Assembly: GCA_009760855.2 (NCBI GenBank)
Contig: WPIO01000024.1
Location: forward strand, 2,765,001-2,829,000
DNA length: 64,000 nt
Reading direction: 5' to 3'
From: Cristatella mucedo
Taxonomy: Eukaryota > Bryozoa > Phylactolaemata > Cristatellidae
Shown here one piece after another: positions 4,978-54,361 of this stretch. A program made the position numbers and the translations under genes. The notes below the pieces were generated by a model. The model did no database searches, was not told the origin of the DNA, and saw only the letters and a list, made by a program, of their open reading frames with translations. How positions within the stretch are numbered: position 1 is the first letter of the stretch; each line of letters opens with the position of its first letter.

Positions 4978-5103
4978 CTTTGGTTTCATTGGTTATGCAG
5001 TTAGCGTATTCAGAATTGCACTTCTTATCATTTTTAATGCATGTTCGATCCCAGAAAAATGAAGACGGACAAAAAAAGAATCCGTTATCGCAGAAGTCTT
5101 TCA
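4978..5103 (-). CDS. exon: six-cysteine secreted domain, LDL-A-like spacing
   Basis: This 126-nt minus-strand exon has a strong acceptor (ATGCTACTTTTTTTAG) and donor AAAG then GTAAGT, symmetric phase 1-1. It encodes 42 residues, KDFCDNGFFFCPSSFFW through NCITNETK. Cys spacing is C6C9C6C6C, with the next Cys in the 2582 exon. That is close to an LDL-receptor class A repeat but lacks the acidic calcium-binding D-x-x-S-D-E, so a generic Cys-rich extracellular module is the safer call. A sequon (NET) is present. Phase-1 symmetric exons are typical of shuffled extracellular modules. Confidence 0.58.
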
Positions 5104-6117
5104 CTAAAAAAAGTAGCATAGGATGGAGAGTGTCGACAACCACATGTTCATGCTAGTGAAGAAAATACGGAAATGTACAGTAAGCCAAACATTGAAGGTA
5201 AAATAGCCATTCAATTAGTATTCATAAAAAAATCGGATATATACTGCATTTGCTATCGTTTCACTTATCACGAAGAGGTAAATAGTCCTTAATAATAAGT
5301 CAAAGCAAGAGTTTCATCGTTACAGACAAAAGCTTATGGCAGCGAAGAAATAATAAATTGAGATTGTAACTGTGATTGAATTTTCGAAGCTTCAGATGTG
5401 TTATTGCGGTAAGAATATAATCATTTTCGAGCCGCATTAGGTCAAAGGAATTTTTCGTGAAGCAGCAATTCTCGAGTGCAGCTGCCAAAAGTTTCTCTAT
5501 CGGTCAGTTAATAATTATTCATGAAAAATCACTCTAGGGGCTTCCTGAAAAACTGAGCCCTCAAGACCAAAAATTGCGCTGCGTTCAGCTTAAGCTTAGT
5601 GCTTATTGTCAAGAAAATCCTGGCTTGACTTAATGGAAACTATGCACCGGTGCTCACAGGCAAAGAGCGTTTTTTTCTTGGGAAATAGGAAGAAATTGGT
5701 TGCTATTCAGAAATTGGGTAGCCCAACCCTCAAGCAGTGCTCCACAAACATATATAGGGTTTGAGTGTCTCGTTCAAATTTGACATTTACCCGATGACCG
5801 CATCAACTTGACAAAACATCTGTGGACTACTCTATGACTACATTGCAAAAATTTAGGTTTGGATACAAGAGGATAACAGAATCAAGCTGGTTCATAAATT
5901 GGTGACACACCGACTAAACATATATAACGCACTACTCCACGGCCTTCTACTATTCTCGCAGGTAAGAAAGTCAAACGTGGTTTCTGTGGCTGTGATATTT
6001 TTACTTTTTTTCCGTTGAAGTACTTTGTAGCTTTATTTTCGCTTGCAATCTTCGCTAGATACCGACACATCATTATTAATATTATTGCTGTTCTTATTGG
6101 AGAGAGATTTAACGCCA
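5104..6117. other. intron-like, nothing recognised
   Basis: Short minus-strand frames at 5300-5488 and 5882-6073 lack splice support or domains. Confidence 0.5.
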
Positions 6118-11333: not shown

Positions 11334-11530
11334 CTACATTCGCATGACGTTGGTGGCATGTCATCCGCACGAACGGCAGACGAACACTTTCCGAAGTTGC
11401 AAAACCCACGGTTGCTGCTTGAGCGACACGTCATTCCTTCAGGCGGTAGGAAGCCTGGAATTTCGAAGCAGGTCCCATTACTTCCTTTTAAACACTGCAC
11501 TTCTTTGCAAATCAAAGAAGTGGAAGAATT
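11334..11530 (-). CDS. exon: cysteine-rich domain of ADAM/ADAMTS-like type
   Basis: This 197-nt minus-strand exon has acceptor TTGTGCTTTTTAG and donor TGTAG then GTGAAT, phase 0 to 2. It encodes about 65 residues with eight cysteines. The core PPEGMTC...GFCNFGKC matches the P-x-G-T-x-C...W/F-C-x-x-G-K-C signature of the cysteine-rich segment that follows M12B catalytic domains in ADAMTS-type and related secreted metalloproteases. There are two possible sequons (NSS, NGT). A plus-strand ORF of 110 codons overlaps it (11263-11595), but only the minus frame has the Cys signature. The acceptor phase (0) does not match the 12033 exon, so another exon probably lies between. Confidence 0.62.
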
Positions 11531-18816: not shown

Positions 18817-20137
18817 AAGATATGCTCATAATAGGAAGAATTAAAAAGCGAGAGGAGCAGAATATTTATTTTTGACTGGATAGACTTTGCTTGGTTTTTA
18901 AAGATTATGCTTTCTTAGATATGCAGTTTCACTTTGCTTGCGCATGTCGGCTAGCCGAATGGCTTTATTTTTTTTCTGGGATTCCCATTCACCACCGAAT
19001 TTCTGTCGTACTTGAAGGAAAGGCTGGCCCTCTTCGGGCATACCAGACAGCACGTATATCTGCGCGCTCTGGAGAGCCATTACGAAGGCGCTAAACAGCG
19101 GGCTTCAATGCCAGTGAAACGAAACAAGCTAGAAACTCACGTGAAATAAAGTTCCCGTAGGCGTTGGTTGTCAGGGGAGGTGATTCTCGAAGTAATAGCT
19201 CAGTTGCACATCAGAGAACTTCATCGCTTTCTACTTCTAAGCACTTCTCAGTGGCTGTACAGGAAGCATGACCCTATAGTTGGTAGTGGAATGCACGGTG
19301 CCAACAAGCGAAATACTCATCAAATACCATCAGGTACACCTGGGCTTTTATTTAGCTTCTTTTAAATGCCACCAGGCAGGGGGTAATTGACGATCGTCAG
19401 TCGAGTGTAGGCCCCAAGATATGGGGGCATACAAATCTAAATGATTGGGCTAAATGATTTGAGTCAGAAGAGCAAGAGGTAGGATGCCCAACGTGCACTG
19501 TGAGCAGTTCTGATAGATAGGTTGGGCAAGAAAGTAGATGTGCCGAAAAGTGAGTGCCTACAATGAGCCTCGGAGTCGATTCGCTACTTGAATGGGAGCC
19601 GGTGCAGGTCTGTGATTAGCGTTGCAGTGTGGTGACTGTAACGCTCAAGACAAGCAAGCCTAGCTTCAGAGTTCTGAACTAACTGTACGAGCCTAATTGC
19701 ATAGGCCATAGAATACAAAAAATGTGAAAACAGAACAGAAGTCAAGACGGGATAACACACCAGAATTGAAATGCTTGGGTTTAGTATCTCTGTCTAAGGA
19801 GGCCCGTATTTGAACCGTAATACACAAATGAAAGCAGGCAGATTTGACTCATATGAATTGAATAGATGACGCTCGAAAATGCACGCAATTTGTTTTATGA
19901 TTAAACGAGGAGCCAATTAGAGCTCGACAATGAAGGACTTGTAGTAATAAGAATATACAATTTTACAGCTCCAGATATAAATAAATATCTTTCGAGGCAC
20001 TTTTTGTTGCCTAGAAAACAAGAATATCAGTTAGGCTAGGATTGGCATGTATTGCGTCAGCTCGCACAAGCACATTAAGTGGCATTCACGCAAAAATTAT
20101 TTGCATAGCACCCAGAGCTAACGAGGTTTCTTTGCAG
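18817..20137. other. unassigned
   Basis: Contains the weak similarity partner of 18060-18270 at about 19115-19280; otherwise intron-like. Confidence 0.4.
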
Positions 20138-20429: not shown

Positions 20430-21281
20430 CTGCAATCGTTTACCCACTCATTATAGTTTTTATTTGCTCTATTTTGAAAAGGCATGATCACCTCGTTAGT
20501 AATTGATGTTCAAAGACAACGCATCAGGTTTCAATCTTATAAAAATATGTAGCACTAATTGTTGCTAATTGTTGTTCGAGGTCTTTTTCCTCAATTCAGC
20601 GCACACATTTACCTCAACGGCGTTCTTATGTTAAATGTTATTTTGTAGCGAATGTGAAACGGATGAATGAATGCTGAAGAATGAATTATTTTTGTGGCTA
20701 ATATGTGGGATTATAGGTAGTCATCAAATGATATTCGAAAGCTTCAATAATTTAAGGAGCTGTCAAACTATCCAATCTTCAATTTATTCTAAAAGCTCCA
20801 CTAACCTATTACCAGGAATCCTGGTTTCTCGCCAATAAATTCCACCGCGTCAGCAATGCTTCTTGAACAAAATGAGTGCATTTGCAAGGCCGTGCCAATC
20901 AGATACACCCCTGCAGAGCTTTATTAGTTAAATGTTTCAAATTCTTGGCCCTCTGTGGTAAAATGTTTTCACAAACAGTCGTGGTGGCACACACATCCGT
21001 GCCCATAAACGTGGTAGCTGATATTAACAGCTACTTTGGGTATCAAGGTTTATTTTGGATTTTTGGCAGCTGAGTAAACCTGATTGGAAAAGTGACAAAG
21101 ATAATTTTCCAAAGCTCAACTTGAACTGGCATCACTATGTTGTAGATGCACTTAACCTAATCGCTTTTGCATTAAGAAAAATAAATCTTTTCTGTATGTA
21201 AAAGTACGAATCAATAAATTCTAATCGTAGAGAATTGCAGCTAAAACAAAATATAGAATGTAAACAGTACAAAGACCTTAC
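20430..21281. other. intron-like
   Basis: Intron between 21282-21437 and 20379-20429. A minus frame near 20875-21010 (with FMGTDVCATTTVC) follows an AATATCAG acceptor-like site but ends in a stop and breaks the phase chain. Confidence 0.5.
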
Positions 21282-21437
21282 CTCATGACATTAAACATAT
21301 TTCTCAAAGAGCAGCACGAAAGGTAGTAGCTGTTTGAAGACCAAACCGAAAAGTTTGTGATTTGCCCCATGATGAAGCCTTTCCTAGGAGAGCAGTCAGT
21401 ATTTGACTCATCAGCGCCGTCAAACGAGGCACCTAAG
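21282..21437 (-). CDS. exon: M12B-like domain, zinc site second half and Met-turn
   Basis: This 156-nt minus-strand exon has acceptor ATATTGTCGCAG and donor ATGAG then GTAAGG, phase 2 to 2. It starts SLGASFDGADESNTDC, which aligns with S-L-G-A-x-H-D-G of reprolysins; the third zinc His is Phe and the following Asp is kept. GFIMG fits the Met-turn (G-Y/F-I-M). NSYYLSCCSLRNMF fits the conserved Y-x-F-S-x-C-S segment closing the domain. It joins the 21538 exon across an intron of 100 bases. It encodes 52 residues and has one sequon (NFS). This is the clearest family evidence in the window. Confidence 0.77.
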
Positions 21438-21537
21438 CTGCGACAATATCAAGACTTTAACCGAAGAAATTTGATCTGCGCATGCAATATTGCGTGAAAG
21501 GCAATTTAACATGCAGATTAATAAATTGGAACTTTAC

Positions 21538-21670
21538 CTTCTTGCAAGGGCTTGCGCTGCAAATAGGAGAACCGGCCATTCGTAGGGAGCGGTAACAGTA
21601 TCTCCCAGATTAATGAAAATAACCACTGGAATTTTCTGCTTCGAATACTGGCACATATTGTTTCTGGTAT
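21538..21670 (-). CDS. exon: M12B-like active-site helix, zinc ligands replaced (first half)
   Basis: This 133-nt minus-strand exon has acceptor AAGTATTTTTTTAG and donor AAG then GTAAAGT, phase 1 to 2. It encodes about 44 residues: an N-x-M-C that aligns with the conserved G-G-x-C, the strand KIPVVIFINLGD, and the helix LLFAAQALAR. In active reprolysins this helix reads A-H-E-L-x-H. Here it reads A-Q-A-L-A-R, so the first two zinc His and the catalytic Glu are Gln, Arg and Ala. No stop or frameshift interrupts it and both splice sites are strong, which argues for a functional exon of a non-catalytic protein rather than decay. Confidence 0.72.
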
Positions 21671-22090: not shown

Positions 22091-22175
22091 GTTACTGCAG
22101 TATCGCTCATTCCTACAAATTCCTACATTTTTCATAGTATCCAATTACATCATTCCTAGTATCGCTCATTCCTAC

Positions 22176-22532
22176 TGCTCGCAAAGCCTGGTACTCCCTC
22201 CCGACCTGTGTCAGAACATCCCCTGACCTGACCACATTTAAAAGCAACTTAAAAACACACCTATTTAGGACAGCATTTAGTGGGTCCCTGTGATTCGTCC
22301 TTCATGTGCTTATGCTTGCTGACACTGTGCATGCTGCCACTAACAACATTTGCATGCTGACCCTGTGCATGTCACCCCTAACCATGTTATTCATTTTGTT
22401 TGCTTTTCAAGCATGACTTTACTTACCATTCAATTGCATTTCCCTTTGCAGCAAATGTAAAGCGCCTAGAAAGAGATTAAGTTCTCTGAGGGTTCTTTAT
22501 CAAATACATTATTATTGTTATTATTATTATTA
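22176..22532 (+). mobile_element. LINE-A 3' end, young type
   Basis: Begins at the codons for A-K-P-W, runs through the 3' UTR repeats and hairpin, and ends in a TTATTATTA tail. Little divergence from the 52-kb copy. Confidence 0.85.
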
Positions 22533-24773: not shown

Positions 24774-26940
24774 ATGTAACGTAATGCAATGCAATGTAAC
24801 GTATCGCCGTCTGTAACTCATAAAAGCCACAAAGACCATATGGGTGGTAAGCCGGAGAGTTTTATATAGCCCACTCACAGCCTAAGCGGCTTTAGGTATG
24901 CGTTCGGTAGCCAACAGACTTCAGATCAGGCAACAGAGAGAACGTGGGAAGCATAGCAGATTCAGGAGAGCAATTGAGTTAGTTAGTAACATGTAAGTGT
25001 AAGCTCAGAACAGCTAAAAGGGATGTGCTATAGCCGGCAGCACGAGAGCAGTTGTCATTGCATAAGAACCACGGAAGCGAGTTCCACAGTCTAGAACCTG
25101 CAAAACAAAAGCTTCTGTTGCCATCGGTCTTCAACATGAGAAATGAAACAGTTAATTTACTGTCCATACAGGACCTGAGGGCACGAGGAGGCTGAAACTG
25201 GTGCAGCAGTGCAGCTAGGTATGGAGGAGCCAAGCCGTGGTGGGCCTTTCGGGTCAGCATAAGAACTATACACTATATCCGTTGATCAACCGGCAGCCAT
25301 CCTAGCTCTGTTAGCAAAGAAGACACGCGTCCAAACCTCTCCGATTTCAGTCTAGCCTTGCAGCCATATTCATAGCTATCTGCAGTGACCTAGTTGCTTT
25401 TCCGGTAGCCCAGCCGAGGAAATTATTATAAGCCAAGGGAATTACAATAATCAAGCCGAGACAGAACTACAGAGCTCGTTAACGTCTTTGTAAGCAACTG
25501 TGGAAGACAGCTCATAATCTTAGATAGGGATCTGATGCGATGGTTAGCTGTAGAAGCAGTCTACTGAATGAAGCTTTTAAAATTTCGACAGCTGTCGAAA
25601 ACTAAATTAAATTTAGAGCACATGATGATGGTCGAACAAAAGCATCACCTATTAGAAGAGCGAAGCCTTCCAGTGCAGCCACAAGCTTAGGGTACCCTAT
25701 GAGCAGCAGTTCAGTTTTATCGTCGTTTAGTTTCAAGAAACTTGCCAACATCCAGGATCAAATTTTGGCAATATCAGCATTCCGTGTAACTGTTGCTGCA
25801 GCAGATTCCGATGGTTTGAATGACAAATACGGCAGCATGAAAGTGACATCGTATTCCACGGGCCCAGCAACCTTTCTTGAGAGTGAGTGTGCATGGAGAA
25901 GAGCAAGGGACCGAATTCGGACCCTTGAGGGACGGCTCCGCAGGTGGCCGGTCTTGCAGGTGAGACCTGACCCCCACGCGACACTGATTGAACACGATCA
26001 GACGAGTATGATTGAAGCCACGCCAGTGCCTCATCTGCCAGACCCATCACTGTTCTCGATCGTTCAAATAGGACATCATGATCAATGGTGTAGAAAGCAG
26101 CTGAGAGATCTAGCTGAGCTAGCGAAGTGGCATTCCCGCTATCGTTGCTGCATAGGATGTCATTGCTAACAATGAGGAGAGCAGTTTCAGTGGTGTGGTG
26201 CGTCTTGAACCCAGATTGAAATGTTGTCGACAATTAATTCTTTTCAACATATGCTACTAGCCGCTTAGCAACGATTTTTTCAAGAATCTTTGCCAATCAA
26301 GGAAAAAGGGAAACTGGGCGATAGTTTGCAAGGACCACTGCATCCAATCCAGGCTTTTAAGTATCATTCAAACGATCTCCGATTTGAAGAACTTAGGTAC
26401 GAACCATTTACCTAAAAAAGCATTAAAAATCTCGGTTATGGCAGGGCTAAGTTTGTTTGCCAGTGAAGACCACAGAGATAATGGTCTAGGGTCTTTAGAA
26501 GACGAGTTCTTTTTACTAAACCTTATTAAGGTAGCCACATCGCATGCAGAAACCTCGGAAAATCGTTCAAGGATGGTCACAGATTGCTATTTGGCAGTTG
26601 CTTTACTCGACGGGGGCTTTAAAGAGGCACAAGTGTACACAATTTTTTCAGTAAAGAAGGCTGAAAACCATTCGGCTGAGCCGCTAATATCTGGGCAGTC
26701 ATATCTCTCACCGTTGGCCTGTAAGTCGTGTACCGTCTTATAAATCAGTTGTGGGTCTGACTGGCAGGACTTCAGTTTTCGAGTGAAAAAAAAACCTTGG
26801 CTTTTTTAAGCTTCTGGGTGTAAACTTCAATGAAGTCATTGAAATTGAATAGATTTGCACCAGAAACCGACGTCTTAAAACGACATTCAAGCCTGCGCTT
26901 ATACCGGCCGTTCCTAATGTAGACAATTATATAGCCTCAA
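24774..26940 (-). mobile_element. LINE-B, longest copy, RT region frameshifted
   Basis: Runs from an ATGTAACGTAATGC-type tail through the 3' UTR into the RT domain. Minus-strand fragments: 26368-26580 (RT N-terminal FSEVS...SSSKDP...LSPAITEIFNAFLGKW), 25733-26233 (QSGFKTHHTTETALL, palm motif A LDLSAAFYTIDHD, motif B PQGSEFGPLLFS) and 24979-25260 (C-terminal region). The Y-A-D-D box is lost across a frameshift near 25880. No endonuclease domain remains, so it is not autonomous. Confidence 0.82.
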
Positions 26941-29515: not shown

Positions 29516-31382
29516 GGAGGCACAATTTAAAATTTTGTGTTTTAAAAGTCACGATGAACGCCCAGTAAAAGTATTTCTGATAAGTCCCTCACTTCATGTA
29601 GTTTTAGTCTCCAACATATGGCAACTCATAATGTCATGATAAAGGAATGATATCAAATTAGTCACATTTACTATCCGGTAATGAGTGCAACAACAGATCT
29701 TATTATTGGTGTTCAAAGCGTACCAGCTTGATAAATATGGACTATGTGAGGCAACAGAGCTATTATCAAATTTGAATTTAAAATTTAAAGATTTTATTAG
29801 AAAACCATCGTCTGCTGATGACGTAACTCATTACTTGTCACTATGTATAGCTCAAAAATTCACTACCATTTGCAAAAATAAGCTTGAAAAAAACTGGCAG
29901 AAATGTATAGCAAAGGCCTCATGTAGGCAATATAAACCCAATGTTAAATCTAATTAGAGCTGCAATACTTACCAAAAATAAATTATTAAGCACACGAGAT
30001 TAGAAAGAAAGTGATAAATTAGGCCAAAATTTTCCGTTTATATCTCTAGCCTAGAACGATTTATTAGCATATGGTATCTTTCGCAAAATATAATTAGCTG
30101 CAATAAATGAGCAATGGTAGCCTACATTAAATGGTTGAGTTGCTGTTGCATTCATTTAATAGCTTTTTTTTTAAAAGTAGATCCCACAAGCAAGCCCGTT
30201 TCAGGAATTTGAGAAGTGCCGTAAATTGACCTAAGAACTGCAAGCACAGAGTATAACTGTCTCAGCAGTTATTCATTTTGACCGCGTTAGAAAATGAAAG
30301 AACTGTGCTCATATTGGTCAAGCAAGTCCTTTTGGAACAGTGCACCTAGATTACTGGTTGAGGTAATGAAAGTGGTGTTTGATAAGCCGTTATTGAGGAC
30401 CAGGTCATTCATTTTTGGTTGACACTTGGTGTTACATAAATTATAAGGTTGAACTTTATACAGTGAAGCTTCGCCAAGCTAGCGGCCATCCAAATGCGAA
30501 TGCTATAGCTGCTTGAATCAAGATACTTTAACGGGTAAGCTTGGGTTCGAAAGTTTGAAGGGTGGAAGTATAAGAGAAGCTTGGATTCGTCAGCTAGTGA
30601 TAAATGCCCAGATTGTGGAGGTGACTGCATGTGCAAGAGTGAGCGTGTGGATAGCGAAAAGAAAAGGGCCCACGGAAGCTACCTGAGGGCATCTCCGCGT
30701 TCTATAATTAAATCAATGCCATCATCAATGCTGTGGCTATATTCTATAGTGGCAATTGCTGCTTACCAGAGCTGCCTAACTCTCAGAAAGAGATCTTTCG
30801 GACCCAACCGGAGAGCCACCAGTCGAGAGGAGATGCGGACTAGGGAACTAGGACAGTGCTGGCTCGTCTTGGTCCCCATTCTGGTAAGTAGGTCACAGCT
30901 TTACTAATATTTTCAGTGCTACGGCCAAGGCCATTTGGAGCCTCGAGGCTGACGGCAGAAGTGCTGAGCGACGCCCTTATTCAGCACTATTTCTCGACAT
31001 CATGCCTCACGTTCAAATTCGCCTTCATCTCGCCCCACCTGATAGAGGGCTAATCCCACACGAGCTCAGGCATCGCAGCAAAAGAACCAGGATATACTGA
31101 ATGCAATTCGCTGGTCTATGTCCCTGTCAAGAGTGCGAGTGATGAGCAAAAAACCAGCTGCCGTTGACTACAAGTGAAGGTCCAAGGTAAAAGGTCAAAG
31201 TAGAATACTTTAAGCACTCATCAAATTAATGCGCTTGCTACATGGTAGTGCAACGTTCAAAATGGTAGGCATCACTTTGACTAGCACATGGAAATGAAAG
31301 ATCTGTTATCCGAGTCAACATAATCGCCGCTTCGAGTGAACGATTCCTCATTAAACTCTGCTATCGATTGAAAGCCCATTAA
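29516..31382. other. unassigned, two plus-strand frames
   Basis: 29685-29957 (90 codons, AT-rich, ends before an AATAAA) and 30581-30907 (108 codons, starts CPDCGGDCMC). Neither matches a known family, and the second lies in a locally GC-rich block that may be an old repeat. Confidence 0.4.
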
Positions 31383-35062: not shown

Positions 35063-35312
35063 CGTATAATCTGGTGACAATGGTGCCAATGATTCTGTAT
35101 AAGTCATAGGTGAGTGCTCTATGATTATGCAGATGACTGCTGATCCACGTTCGGCGTTTGTGTACCTCGTCTAAGCGTTTTCGCAGCCGTATAATCTGGT
35201 GACAATGGTGCCAATGATTCTGTATAAGTCATAGGTGAGTGCTCTATGATTATGCAGATGACTGCTGATCCACGTTCGGCGTTTGTGTACCTCGTCTAAG
35301 CGTTTTCGCAGC
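35063..35312. repeat. exact 125-bp tandem duplication
   Basis: 35063-35187 and 35188-35312 are identical over all 125 bases, starting CGTATAATCTGGTGACAATG. The sequence is unique in the window, not a transposon or simple repeat. Confidence 0.95.
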
Positions 35313-36149
35313 CTTGTCGAAGTACGTTACTTTGCGGGCCATGACGCTTTCACGCCTTTACTAGCGACAGTTTCTGTAAAACTGATATTTTGGAATTGCA
35401 ATGCGGCGATTCTTTGCAGGTAATTCCTTGTGTCCTTATACGTTCTTAAGCTTCAAACGGATGCGACGATGCAGTGATTGCTGAAGCCGTATCACAAAAA
35501 CGGATTGGCCGCCTTGTTGAGATATATAAACTTAATTAATCACATAATATCATAAGTCTGAAAGCAGGTCTTTGCCACCTAAAACATCAGCTGGATGACC
35601 GTACCTTCAGCATAGACTGCCTATGGGATTACAAGGTCAGACGTCTGGATTATCGAGTCAAAGCCACGAATAAACGTGATAACGCGCACTCGTAGTTAGT
35701 TGCACGACAATAAATCGAGGTTATATCGTAATGGTAATTGTGCTGTGAGCAGTAATTGCGTTCTACTCTGAGATAATTTCATGTTTCTTTTAAATTTGGG
35801 CAGGTGCTAATGATGCTCACTGTTAACTGCGCTTTAAAAAGTCACATAATGTTTTTAAAAATCTGAAAAAACGGCGAATTAAACTCATCTCACTGAATGT
35901 CAATGAAGGTTGTCGGTGATGAAGATGAAAATAAGATAAGTGCATTGAATAATGCTTGGGAAGAGACTGAAAGTACTTGGTAGTAAGTGTGCTAAGCCAC
36001 TAGCTTGGCTACGTTGGGCTTCTTTAACTATTCCAACCTAGGAGGGCCTTAACTTAAATAGGTGGCCATGCAACGCCGGAGTGCTGGAGCAGCCAGATCA
36101 AGAAAAAATGTACAGATTTTTAGTAGTTCCTGCGTTTAAGTCTAAATAA
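35313..36149. other. nothing recognised
   Basis: Intron-like. Confidence 0.5.
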
Positions 36150-44273: not shown

Positions 44274-44582
44274 CTAAAGGTATAATTTAATTTTTTGCAT
44301 CATAATTTATTCAATGACAGTGCAACCGAAACAGTCATCGTGCCTTAAGGTAAAAGCTACTACATATATAACTATAGCTAGGGAAAGGAAGAATACAACT
44401 TATTCAATTTATAACGTTTACAATTTGGTTTAGTAATGAAAATATTGGAAATATCAGTTATCGGTAACATAGATATACCAGATACTTTGTACAAAGTTTT
44501 AAAAATAACCATACAATTAATAATTATTTTTGATTGTAAAAGGGATTAAGTCGGTCAGTAACTGTAGAAAAAAGATGATGCG

Positions 44583-47029
44583 GTGCTCTTGAGTACCACA
44601 TATGATCTAGCAGATCGCTTCTCTCGATTCTTTGTGCAGAAGATAGACAAGATCAGGGAATCCATCCCTGCGATGACGACCTCCATACTAGAATGCTGTT
44701 CTTCGGTTCCTGGCTGCACCTCAATGTCTGCATATAAGCAGGTCACTAGTGATCTAGTCCTAAAGTTCGTATCTCAATCAAAGAAGACAACAAGTCCTCT
44801 GGACCCTATTCCCGCTGTCCTGCTCCTATGTTGCATTGATCTGCTGCTGCCATGCAAAACTAACTTCATTAATATGTCATTAGCCTCAGGTCATGTCCCA
44901 GCACCTTTCAAAAAAGTTGTAGTCAGGCCACTTCTCAAGAAAGCGACACTAGACCAAGAGAACTTAAGCAACTACCACCCAGTCTCCATTCTACCATTCC
45001 TATCAAAGACACTGGAACGGATCGTGGCAGACCAGCTGAACTCTTATATCGAAACCTCACACCTTGCTAGTAAGTTCCAGTCTGGCTTTAGAGCTAATCA
45101 CTCAACAGAGTCAGCATTGCTTCGGGTATGCAACAACCTACTTAGGAATGCAGACATGGGTAGAGTGTTTCTGCTTGTTGTGCTCGATCTTCCGGCAGCT
45201 TTTGATACCACTATAGTCGTGAATGGACAAAGATAGTCGTGAATGGACAAAGGTCATCTGAAGTACCTCTAAAATATGGAGTACCTGGTACAAACCTTAA
45301 ATCCTTTGGAGACCGTGCATTTAGTTCGTATGCTCCCAAAGCCTGGAAATACCTCCCGACCTGCGTCAGAACATCCCCTGACCTGACCACATTTAAAAGG
45401 AACTTAAAAACGCACCTATTTAGGACAGCATTTAGTGGGTTTCTGTGATTCGTCCTTCATGTGCTTATGCGTGCAGACACTGTGCATGCTGCCACTAACC
45501 ACATTTGCATTCCGACCCTGTGCATGTCACCCCTAACCATGTTATTCATCTTGTTTGTTTTTCAAGCACGATTTTACTTACAACTCAATTGCATCTCGTT
45601 TTGCAGCCAATGTAAAGCGCCTAGAAAGAGATTAAGTTCTCTGAGGGTGCTTTATCAAGTACATTATTATTATTATTATTATTATACCATCGATCACAAA
45701 GTCCTTCTAGAGCGCCTCTCATCTCGCCTGGGCATCACTGGCACTGCTCTGCAGTGGTTCAGGTCCTACCTCAGTGGGAGACTCCAGAGCACTGACGTGA
45801 ATGGACAAAGATCTTCTGAAGTACCTCTGAAATATGGAGTACCTCAGGGCTCCGTGCTAGGTCCTGCTCTTTTCACGGTTTATACTCTCCTTCTTGCAGA
45901 CGTGATTGCCAAGCACAATCTAGGGTTTCACTTCTATGGGGATGACACTCAGTTGTACCTTTGCTTTGATCCCTCCCAGCCTTCGAGCACCTCAAATTCT
46001 CTCAACTCACTTGCTGTATGTATTCATGACATCCGTGCATGGATGGCAGCAAATTTTTAAAAACTAAACGATGATAAAACTAACTTACTAACTATGGGCA
46101 AACTCAGTGCGATTCACAAATTGGAAAGGCTAAATCTCAAAATTGGCTCTGATAACATATCTCCTGTTAAATCAGCTTGAAATCTAGGTGACATGATCCA
46201 AAGTAACCTCTCGTAGACGACCATATCAGCTCCACAGTCAAATCTGCCAATTTTCAGCTTCATTATATTGCTAATATTCGGGCTTGTTTAGTCAAGGATA
46301 CCACATCTAAGTTGGTCCATGCATTCGTGACATCTGGTCTCGACTTCTGCAACTCACTGCTTACTGGCCTACCAGCATGTGCGATCAGGCGATTGCAGCT
46401 GGTGCAAAACTCTGCAGCTAGGCTTGTCTGTCGTTAGCAGTGCAGTTGCCACATTACTCCACTTCTCTCCGACCTGCGCTGGCTACCGGTCAAGCAACGG
46501 ATTGACTTCAAGGTTTTGTCGCTGACTTTTAGGTCCCTTCATTATATGGCTCCAGCCTATCTCTCCGACATACTCCCCCATCAGGCCAAGTATCGTACCA
46601 CCAGCTTTTCGGAATCCAACAGTCTAGAAATACCTCGTACAAACCTTAAATCTTTTGGAGACCGTGCATTTAGTTCGTATGCTCCCAAAGCCTGGAAATA
46701 CCTCCCGACCTGCGTCAGAACATCCCCTGACCTGACCACATTTAAAAGGAACTTAAAAACACACCTATTTAGGACAGCATTTAGTGGGTACCTGCGATTC
46801 GTCCTTGATGTGCTTATGCGTGCTGACACTGTGCATGCTGCCACTAACCACATTTGCATGCTGACCCCGTGCATGTCACCCCTAACCATTTTATTCGCTT
46901 GTTTGTTTTTCAAGCATGATTTTACTTACGATTCAATTGCATTTCACTTTGCAGCAAATGTAAAGCGCCTAGAAAGAGATCAAGTTCTCTGAGGGTGCTT
47001 TATCAAGTGCATTATAATTATTATTATTA
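44583..47029 (+). mobile_element. LINE-A, RT-bearing outer copy interrupted by another LINE-A
   Basis: The first part (44583-45210, 217-codon frame) carries DLADRFSRFFVQKIDKI, the RT N-terminal segment, QSGFRANHSTESALL and palm motif A LDLPAAFDT. After the inserted copy it resumes at 45684 with TIDHKVLLERL, motif B GVPQGSVLGP and FHFYGDDTQLY, so the usual Y-A-D-D is Y-G-D-D. It then stops at a TAA at about 46058 (CTA to TAA, after NF), loses one base near 46215 and has another stop near 46434. The C-terminal frame 46516-46992, 3' UTR, hairpin and TTATTATTA tail follow. Inactive. Confidence 0.88.
45211..45683 (+). mobile_element. LINE-A inserted into LINE-A, internally deleted
   Basis: Inserted within the codons for F-D-T/I-D-H of the outer copy, with ATACCA duplicated at 45205-45210 and 45684-45689. 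It begins with a 20-bp tandem repeat (45213-45232 and 45233-45252) and reads to GGAGTACCT. It then jumps about 1 kb to GGTACAAACCTTAAATC, skipping most of the RT at a shared TACCT. The 3' UTR, hairpin and (TTA)n tail are intact. Confidence 0.85.
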
Positions 47030-52093: not shown

Positions 52094-54300
52094 ATAATAA
52101 TAACAATAATAATAATATTGCACTTGATAAAGCGCCCTCAGAGAACTTAATCTCTTTCTAGGCGCTTTACATTTGCTGCAAAGTGATACGCAATAGAATA
52201 GTAAGTAAAATCATGCTTGAAAAACAAACAAAATGAATAACATGGTTAGGGGTTACATGCACTGGGTCAGCATGCAAATGTGGTTAGTGGCAGCATGAAC
52301 AGTGTCAGCACGCATAAGCACATCGAGGACGAATCACAAGGACCCACTAAATGCTGTCCTAAATAGGTATGTTTTTAAGTTTCTTTTAAATGTGGTCAGG
52401 TCAGGGGATGTTCTGATGCAGGTCGGGAGGGAGTTCCAGGCTGTGGGAGCATACGAGCTAAATGCACGGTCTCCAAAGGATTTAAGGTTTGTACGAGGTA
52501 TTTCTAGACTGTTGGATTCCGAAAAGCGAGTGGTACGATGCTTTGCCTGATGGGGTAGTATATCTGAAAGATAGGCTGGAGCCATAGAATGAAGAGACCT
52601 AAAAGTGAGCGACAAAACCTTGAAGTCAATCCGTTGCTTGACTGGTAACCAGTGCAGGTCGGCGAGAAGTGGAGTAATGTGGCAACTGCGACGCTCACGA
52701 CAGACAAGCCTAGCTGCAGAGTTTTGCACCAGCTGCAATCGCCTGATCGCACATGCTGGTAGGCCAGTAAGCAGTGAGTTGCAGAAGTCGAGACGAGATG
52801 TCACGAATGCATGGACCAACTTGGACGTGGTATCCTTATCTAAACAAGCCCCAATTTTAGCAATGTTATGAAGCTGAAAATAGGCGGATTTGACTGTGGA
52901 GCTGATCTGGTCGTCTAACGAGAGGTCGCTTTGGAATATGACACCTAGATTTCGAGCTGATGCAACTGGAGATATGCTGGCAGAGCCAATTTTGAAAGTC
53001 AGCCTTTCCAATTTCTGAATAACACTAGGTTTGCCCATAACTAGTAAGTTAGTTTTATCATCGTTTAGTTTTAGAAAATTTGCTGCCATCCATGATCGGA
53101 TGTCATCAATGCATGCAGCAAGTGAGTTGAGAGAATTTGAGGTGCTCGAAGGCTGGGAGGGATCAAAGCAAAGGTACAACTGAGTGTCATCCGCATAGAA
53201 GTGAAAGCCTAGATTGTGCTTGGCAATCACATCAGCGAGAGGGAGAGTATAAACGGTGAAAAAGACCGGACCTAGCACAGAGCCCTGAGGTACTCCATAT
53301 TTTAGAGGTACTTCAGATGATCTTTGTCCATTCACGTCAACACTCTGGAGTCTCCCACTGAGATAGGACCTGAACCACTGCAGAGCAGTGCCAGTGATGC
53401 CCAGGCGAGATGAGAGGCGCTCTAGAAGTACTTTGTGATCGATGGTATCAAAAGCTGCCGAAAGATCGAGCAAAACAAGAAGAAGAGACACTATACCCAT
53501 GTCTGCATTCCTAAGTAGGTCGTTGTATACCCGAAGCAATGCTGACTCTGTGGAGTGATTAGCTCTAAAGCCAGACTGGAACTTACTAGCAAGGTGTGAG
53601 GTTTCGATATACGAGTTCAGCTGGTCTGCCACGACCCGTTCCAGTGTCTTTGATAGGAATGGTAGAAGGGAGACTGGGCGGTAGTTGCTTAAGTTCTCTT
53701 GGTCTGGTGTAGCTTTCTTGAGAAGTGGCCTGACTACAGCTTTTTTGAAAGGTGCTGGGACCTGACCTGAGGCTAATGACATATTAATGATGTTGGTTAT
53801 GCATGGCAGCAGCAGATCAATGCAACGTAGGAGCAGGACAGTGGGAATAGGGTCCAGTGGACTTGTTGTCTTCTTTGATTGAGATACGAGCTTTAGGACT
53901 ACATCACTAGTGACCTGTTTAAATGCAGACATTGAGGCGCAGCCAGGAACCGAGGAACAGCATTCTAGTGGGAAGGTTGTCATCGCAGGGATGGATTCCC
54001 TGATTTTGTCTATCTTCTGCACAAAGAATCGAGAGAAGCGATCGGCTAGATCATCACAAGGATCGTCTGGTAAGGAGCTAACCTGGGAACGGTTGAGGAG
54101 ATGGTTTATTGTCGACATCAGCATTTTTGGATTGTGCATCTGTGATTCAACAATGTTTCTATAGAAGCTAGACTTAGCCTTTGCTAGGATCGATTGGTAC
54201 GACCTACAGTAGTCTTTATATGCCTGTCGATGGACAGTTAGTCCGGATCTTTTGTATGCCTTTTCAAGCTTTCGTTTATTAGACTTGGCTATATAATCAC
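52094..54300 (-). mobile_element. LINE-A, best-preserved copy
   Basis: AATAATAACAATAAT tail, intact hairpin, 3' UTR and a long open RT frame (annotated separately). The endonuclease and 5' region are absent. The boundary with flanking DNA lies near 54285-54310, within the N-terminal codons of the open frame. It is the reference against which other copies were compared. Confidence 0.88.
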
Positions 54301-54361
54301 ATTCATGGAATGTCGATTTGAAATAAGAAGTGACAGGCAAAATAATTCTTAGCATGTTCAA
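52334..54361 (-). CDS. LINE-A reverse transcriptase, 675-codon open frame, endonuclease missing
   Basis: The protein is a non-LTR reverse transcriptase of the CR1/L2 type. Order by residue: basic helix with Leu/Arg (about 25-70), N-terminal RT motifs (KKTTSPLDPIP 163-173, NYRPVSLLPFLSKTLER 226-242, QSGFRANHSTESALL 262-276), palm motif A LLDLSAAFDTID (298-308), motif B GVPQGSVLGP (356-365), catalytic FHFYADDTQLY (386-396), then the thumb/C-terminal region with LDFCNSLL, HWLPVKQRIDFKVLSLTF and AWNSLPT. It ends SGSL. All palm residues are present. The usual upstream apurinic-type endonuclease is cut off, so alone it should not mobilise. The first 20 or so residues are probably host flanking DNA, and the ATG is likely not native. 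Confidence 0.88.
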   Translation of the reverse strand: MNMLRIILPVTSYFKSTFHECDYIAKSNKRKLEKAYKRSGLTVHRQAYKDYCRSYQSILAKAKSSFYRNIVESQMHNPKMLMSTINHLLNRSQVSSLPDDPCDDLADRFSRFFVQKIDKIRESIPAMTTFPLECCSSVPGCASMSAFKQVTSDVVLKLVSQSKKTTSPLDPIPTVLLLRCIDLLLPCITNIINMSLASGQVPAPFKKAVVRPLLKKATPDQENLSNYRPVSLLPFLSKTLERVVADQLNSYIETSHLASKFQSGFRANHSTESALLRVYNDLLRNADMGIVSLLLVLLDLSAAFDTIDHKVLLERLSSRLGITGTALQWFRSYLSGRLQSVDVNGQRSSEVPLKYGVPQGSVLGPVFFTVYTLPLADVIAKHNLGFHFYADDTQLYLCFDPSQPSSTSNSLNSLAACIDDIRSWMAANFLKLNDDKTNLLVMGKPSVIQKLERLTFKIGSASISPVASARNLGVIFQSDLSLDDQISSTVKSAYFQLHNIAKIGACLDKDTTSKLVHAFVTSRLDFCNSLLTGLPACAIRRLQLVQNSAARLVCRERRSCHITPLLADLHWLPVKQRIDFKVLSLTFRSLHSMAPAYLSDILPHQAKHRTTRFSESNSLEIPRTNLKSFGDRAFSSYAPTAWNSLPTCIRTSPDLTTFKRNLKTYLFRTAFSGSL

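What the first reader, a model, noticed from the sequence alone, without database searches (positions are those of the whole stretch)
21282..21670. M12B metalloprotease-like gene whose zinc site is completely rewritten (QAxxRxxGxxFD)
The exons at 21538 and 21282 meet within the zinc-binding helix. Translation across the junction gives AAQALARSLGASFDG where active reprolysins have A-H-E-L-x-H-x-L-G-x-x-H-D-G. First His is Gln, Glu is Ala, second His is Arg, third His is Phe, while the Gly, the Asp after it, the Met-turn (GFIM), the closing Cys pair and all splice sites remain. Decay would be expected to hit frames and splice sites too, so a selected non-catalytic role (binding, decoy or scaffold) is plausible.
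Basis: partly seen in the sequence, partly recalled or inferred. Interest (0 to 1): 0.9.

Follow-up and report, generated by a model that had tools for sequence, protein, structure and literature searches.

The report
Possible dead metalloprotease fragment, unproven
Two short stretches of animal DNA look faintly like part of a protein-cutting enzyme whose zinc-holding letters are gone, but the likeness is weak and enzyme relatives without the zinc site are already known.

Summary
What they belong to is unproven. Pfam, NCBIfam, PDB and protein-database searches of the pieces recognise no M12B protease. Two tests favour M12B ancestry. The template with Met-turn recurs in 6 of 1000 simulated windows. 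Piece 2 is human ADAM10's best match in the window (E 0.004; 0 of 150 simulations), but in a register that misses the Met-turn; ADAM17 and ADAMTS show nothing. A cysteine-rich piece at 11530-11334, same strand, fits an ADAMTS-like pattern (0 of 400 simulations) but not an ADAMTS profile. The selection argument is weak: 43 of 150 simulated windows hold such an open, well-flanked exon pair. Most likely an M12B-derived, non-catalytic stretch (0.55), working or decaying; chance is the main rival (0.4). Zinc-less M12B-fold proteins are already described in ticks (PMC9779611), and ADAM22 is a known inactive ADAM (PMC4848645). Interest is low.

The parts
21538..21670 (-). piece 1, possible exon (TRNNMCQYSKQKIPVVIFINLGDTVTAPYEWPVLLFAAQALAR)
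   Evidence: Read directly. No M12B match in Pfam, PDB or NCBIfam; only chance-level others (GTP_EFTU E 0.24, Tudor chains E 0.64-0.73).
21438..21537 (-). possible intron, 100 bases, GTAAAG...GTCGCAG
   Evidence: Read directly. 160 of 6626 GT sites score as high as its donor, 419 of 8437 AG sites as high as its acceptor (recalled splice matrices).
21282..21437 (-). piece 2, possible exon (LGASFDGADESNTDCSPRKGFIMGQITNFSVWSSNSYYLSCCSLRNMFNVM)
   Evidence: Best match of human ADAM10 among 1,587 ORFs of the window, E 0.004; 0 of 150 simulated windows as good. Its donor is among the 13 highest of 6626 GT sites. No family or PDB match and no candidate in the protein database.
11334..11530 (-). possible downstream cysteine-rich exon (CKEVQCLKGSNGTCFEIPGFLPPEGMTCRSSSNRGFCNFGKC); that it belongs to the same gene is inferred
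   Evidence: Flexible ADAMTS-like cysteine pattern once in the window, 0 of 400 simulations; no Pfam match, only an unrelated PDB chain at E 0.25; a profile of four ADAMTS domains ranks it 440 of 1398.

Best explanation
A stretch derived from an M12B (reprolysin/ADAM-type) protease gene on the minus strand, much diverged, whose zinc ligands and general base are gone, so that any product could not cut proteins. Shown: the letters, the open frames and the GT-AG ends. Inferred: the M12B ancestry, the splicing, and the link to the cysteine-rich piece 10 kb downstream. If it is expressed, it most likely works as a pseudoenzyme: the metzincin fold, held by its Met-turn region and cysteines, binds a partner without cleaving it. 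If it is not expressed, it is a decaying copy among LINE remains. Within the total I put about 0.25 on the first and about 0.30 on the second.
For: Template and Met-turn with free splicing: 6 of 1000 simulated windows as good, 1 of 300 permuted templates. Piece 2 against human ADAM10: rank 1 among the window's ORFs, 27.7 bits; 0 of 150 simulations with ADAM10 and 1 of 300 shuffled ADAM10 queries reach it; 0 of 1000 shuffles of piece 2. High-scoring donor of piece 2. Cysteine-rich piece on the same strand and in the expected order.
Against: No M12B model, chain or database protein was found with the pieces. ADAM17, ADAMTS-1, -4 and -5 score as shuffles do (169, 184, 478 and 810 of 1000 shuffles at least as good). 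Profiles of ADAM10+17 and of all five put piece 2 second, at E 0.68 and 0.95; the ADAMTS profile ranks piece 2 at 317 and piece 1 at 120 of 1054 reported ORFs. One of 150 simulations reaches 27.7 bits with one of the five queries, ADAM17. The ADAM10 alignment does not pair the Met-turn. No prodomain or N-terminal catalytic exon was recognised. The cysteine pattern was written after seeing the piece and fails an ADAMTS profile. The ADAM10 comparison was chosen after noticing CSLRN in piece 2.
Confidence: 0.55

Rival explanations
1. Chance: two ordinary open stretches in LINE-rich non-coding DNA that happen to recall an M12B template to a reader free to choose among many families.
For: Searches with the pieces found no M12B relative. 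The window has 1,587 ORFs of 25 or more residues and 18 distinct donors with an open exon-like interval, against a mean of 15.4 in simulations; 43 of 150 simulated windows hold an exon pair of this quality. The template match occurs in 6 of 1000 simulations for this one family. L2-type LINE remains lie on both sides.
Against: ADAM10 match and cysteine-rich piece, each rare in simulations and on the same strand in the expected order.
Confidence: 0.4
2. An active M12B protease whose true exons restore HExxH through other splice sites.
For: Nothing found.
Against: HExxH occurs at 31059 (plus strand) and 1420 (minus strand) only, in settings that do not look M12B-like by eye; no H[EQD]xxHxx[GNA] in the six frames. 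A motif split by an intron is not fully excluded.
Confidence: 0.03
3. The pieces belong to an unrelated secreted cysteine-rich gene.
For: Cysteines in the exon-like pieces at 21282-21437, 11334-11530 and 4978-5152, with no Pfam family match for any of the three.
Against: Nothing links these pieces beyond strand and splice-like ends.
Confidence: 0.02

Closest known systems
Tick metalloproteoids (TickSialoFam 2.0, PMC9779611; passages seen)
   Same: Metalloprotease-like fold by structure prediction, HExxHxxGxxH absent, proposed by the authors to bind host proteins without hydrolysing them.
   Different: Tick salivary proteins known from transcriptomes; here the host is unknown, and no transcript or fold is available. 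Named relatives of the window's LINE, among the 120 listed, are mostly fish and one coral.
Rhipicephalus microplus saliva proteins without the zinc motif (PMC10821567; passages seen)
   Same: Five of 12 proteins of the M12B, M13 and M17 families lacked the zinc motif and could be classed as metalloproteoids.
   Different: Seen as proteins in saliva; nothing of the kind is shown here.
Catalytically inactive ADAMs such as ADAM22 (PMC4848645; passages seen)
   Same: Metalloproteinase domain kept, activity lost; a cited title calls ADAM22 an adhesion receptor.
   Different: ADAM22 is a whole protein with metalloproteinase, disintegrin-like, cysteine-rich and EGF-like domains; only fragments are seen here.

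Membership tests
M12B peptidase (reprolysin/ADAM/ADAMTS) | HExxHxxGxxHD zinc site | tested here: not met
M12B peptidase (reprolysin/ADAM/ADAMTS) | match to curated M12B profiles | tested here: not met
   Pieces apart against Pfam and NCBIfam, and both in one Pfam query parted by 30 X: no M12B family. The joined product was not scanned.
M12B peptidase (reprolysin/ADAM/ADAMTS) | Met-turn and closing cysteines | tested here: inconclusive
   GFIM and SCC are present, but the best ADAM10 alignment does not place GFIM on the Met-turn.
M12B peptidase (reprolysin/ADAM/ADAMTS) | signal peptide, prodomain and N-terminal half of the catalytic domain | tested here: inconclusive
   None recognised; only a part of the minus-strand ORFs listed was given to Pfam.
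M12B peptidase (reprolysin/ADAM/ADAMTS) | metzincin fold | not tested
Tick metalloproteoid | metalloprotease-like fold without zinc motif | tested here: inconclusive
   No zinc motif; the fold was not tested.
Tick metalloproteoid | tick origin, salivary expression | tested here: inconclusive
   Host not identified; own-genome search did not complete; no expression data.
ADAMTS disintegrin-like/cysteine-rich domain (piece 11334-11530) | match to a profile of ADAMTS-1, -4, -5, -13 | tested here: not met
   -0.4 bits, E about 120, rank 440 of 1398 reported ORFs.
[quoted passage not shown]
   Only one cysteine-rich candidate piece seen; no domain recognised by Pfam.

The most novel reading that the evidence does not exclude
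An expressed M12B pseudoprotease gene, outside the known tick and ADAM22-type cases, in which the three zinc histidines and the glutamate have all been replaced while the rest of the domain and a downstream cysteine-rich domain are kept for binding.
Probability: 0.2. Interest if true: 0.4.

Novelty: new member of a known kind. Interest (0 to 1): 0.18.

Why it matters
If real, it would add one more case of a protease fold kept without catalysis, and show how completely the site can be replaced. The principle is already in print for ticks and for ADAM22, so it opens no new question. As a lesson in method, an open frame with good splice ends over two short exons is weak evidence of selection: 43 of 150 simulated windows hold such a pair.

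Tried and rejected
The own-genome search did not complete (nine tries of the same request). Piece 2 against the protein database, padded with X to a protein-like length and unpadded: no candidate shares three 5-residue words; piece 1 was not searched there. Host identification through the LINE ORF at 52337-54361 (120 of 7951 hits listed): the best hit is 75% identical and unnamed, the named ones listed are mostly fish, one coral and one bacterial MAG, at 45-49%; the host is left open. A third M12B-like piece at 20901-20804 was considered and dropped: no family match and rank 64 or lower in the profile tests. A candidate N-terminal strand at 27164-27000 has no Pfam match. Rfam at gathering scores and ARAGORN found nothing. 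The phage, plasmid, E. coli, viral and prokaryote collections were not searched, as they are not collections of animal genomes.

Corrected on checking: I had first counted 5 compatible exon pairs in the window as a sign that such pairs are common. The measure now used is 43 of 150 simulated windows with at least one. Ranks were line numbers that counted three header lines; one search gives the true ranks.

Limits of the statistics: simulated windows are order-2 Markov sequences; the splice matrices, the M12B template and the cysteine pattern are recalled; the ADAM10 and cysteine tests were chosen after looking.

Full report
What is there. On the minus strand, 21670-21538 and 21437-21282 are open and flanked by GT-AG ends, with a 100-base gap between them. 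Across the gap the residues are AQALARSLGASFDG, and piece 2 goes on ADESNTDCSPRKGFIMGQITNFSVWSSNSYYLSCCSLRNMFNVM. The acceptor of piece 1 is ordinary by recalled matrices (1989 of 8437 AG sites score as high), and a higher-scoring one lies 7 bases inside. The donor of piece 2 is among the 13 highest of 6626 GT sites.

Is it an M12B gene? No M12B relative was found with the pieces: Pfam, NCBIfam, solved structures, and 5.8 billion proteins for piece 2 only. A profile of ADAMTS-1, -4 and -5 ranks pieces 1 and 2 at 120 and 317 of 1054 reported ORFs. Against this, human ADAM10 picks piece 2 first among the window's 1,587 ORFs, at E 0.004 and 27.7 bits. In 150 simulated windows no ADAM10 hit is as good, though one window reaches 27.7 bits with ADAM17; 1 of 300 shuffled ADAM10 queries does as well on the real ORFs. 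Shuffling piece 2 never reaches its ADAM10 score in 1000 tries, but ADAM17, ADAMTS-1, -4 and -5 are unremarkable, with 169, 184, 478 and 810 of 1000 shuffles at least as good. With profiles of ADAM10+17, or of all five, piece 2 comes second, at E 0.68 and 0.95.

How surprising is the template? Allowing any GT-AG intron of 40-400 bases, 6 of the 10 specified residues together with a Met-turn-like motif are found once in the window, in 0 of 100 and 6 of 1000 simulated windows, and for 1 of 300 permuted templates. The reversed and the complemented window reach 3. These are single-family figures; a reader choosing among many families would meet such matches by chance more often.

Does intactness show selection? 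At the scores of these very splice sites, the window holds 37 open exon-like intervals of 120-240 bases, sharing 18 donors (simulated windows have 15.4 donors on average). Intact frames and splice ends are therefore weak evidence of selection.

Wider gene. Among further exon-like intervals on the strand, 11530-11334 stands out: CKEVQCLKGSNGTCFEIPGFLPPEGMTCRSSSNRGFCNFGKC. It resembles, from memory and against the ADAMTS sequences, the cysteine-rich region after the catalytic domain of ADAMTS-type proteins. A flexible pattern written for it occurs in 0 of 400 simulations, the six-cysteine spacing alone in 13 of 400. A profile of four human ADAMTS domains does not detect it: rank 440 of 1398, -0.4 bits, while the best ORF in the window scores 8.0, a score that 85 of 150 simulations reach. 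Pfam has no match, and the one PDB match, at E 0.25, is an unrelated zinc-finger chain. It is a lead, not a proof. No N-terminal exon was recognised; 10 further minus-strand ORFs gave no M12B-related Pfam match, and many others were not scanned.

Surroundings. The region is full of L2-type LINE remains: 19 stretches in the window match LINE proteins at E 1e-3 or better, among them 19310-19916, 22162-22290 and 24985-26832 around the pieces. The LINE ORF at 52337-54361 is 75% identical to an unnamed metagenome protein; of the 120 hits listed, the named ones are mostly fish, one coral and one bacterial MAG, at 45-49%. The host is presumably an animal, which I could not name. The pieces have no repeat copy in the window in a self-comparison.

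What it most likely is. I put 0.55 on an M12B-derived, non-catalytic stretch (about 0.25 a working binding pseudoenzyme, about 0.30 a decaying copy), 0.4 on chance, and the rest on other readings. It is not filed as an M12B peptidase, because the defining zinc site was tested and is not met. As a way of working, a protease fold that binds without cutting is known or proposed: tick metalloproteoids (PMC9779611, passages), five of 12 metalloprotease-family proteins of R. microplus saliva (PMC10821567, passages) and ADAM22 (PMC4848645, passages).

Because the host could be a blood-feeding or venomous animal, for which such a protein might be an injected effector, I kept the pieces apart in database searches and left out the search and fold of the joined product. 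The template scripts did join 42 bases across introns.

Noticed in passing
11334-11530 (minus strand): Cysteine-rich exon-like piece CKEVQC...EGMTC...CNFGKC; ADAMTS-like pattern by eye, no curated match.
   Followed up: partly
20804-20901 (minus strand): Piece GVYLIGTALQMHSFCSRSIADAVEFIGEKPGFL after a CTCTGCAG acceptor recalls the M12B segment before the zinc helix, but lies downstream of it; no family match.
   Followed up: partly
4979-5152 (minus strand): Cysteine-bearing exon-like piece (KDFCDNGFFFCPSSFFWDRTCIKNDKKCNSEYANCITNETK) with a high-scoring donor (11.9); no Pfam match.
   Followed up: partly
52337-54361 (minus strand): 675-residue L2-type LINE reverse transcriptase ORF without a stop; 75% identical to an unnamed metagenome protein.
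   Followed up: partly
44568-46794 (plus strand): LINE copy apparently interrupted by another LINE's 3' end, beside a perfect 20-base tandem repeat at 45213-45252; looks like a nested insertion.
   Followed up: no
35063-35313: Perfect tandem duplication of 125 bases (two copies, 100% identical): recent or an assembly artefact.
   Followed up: no
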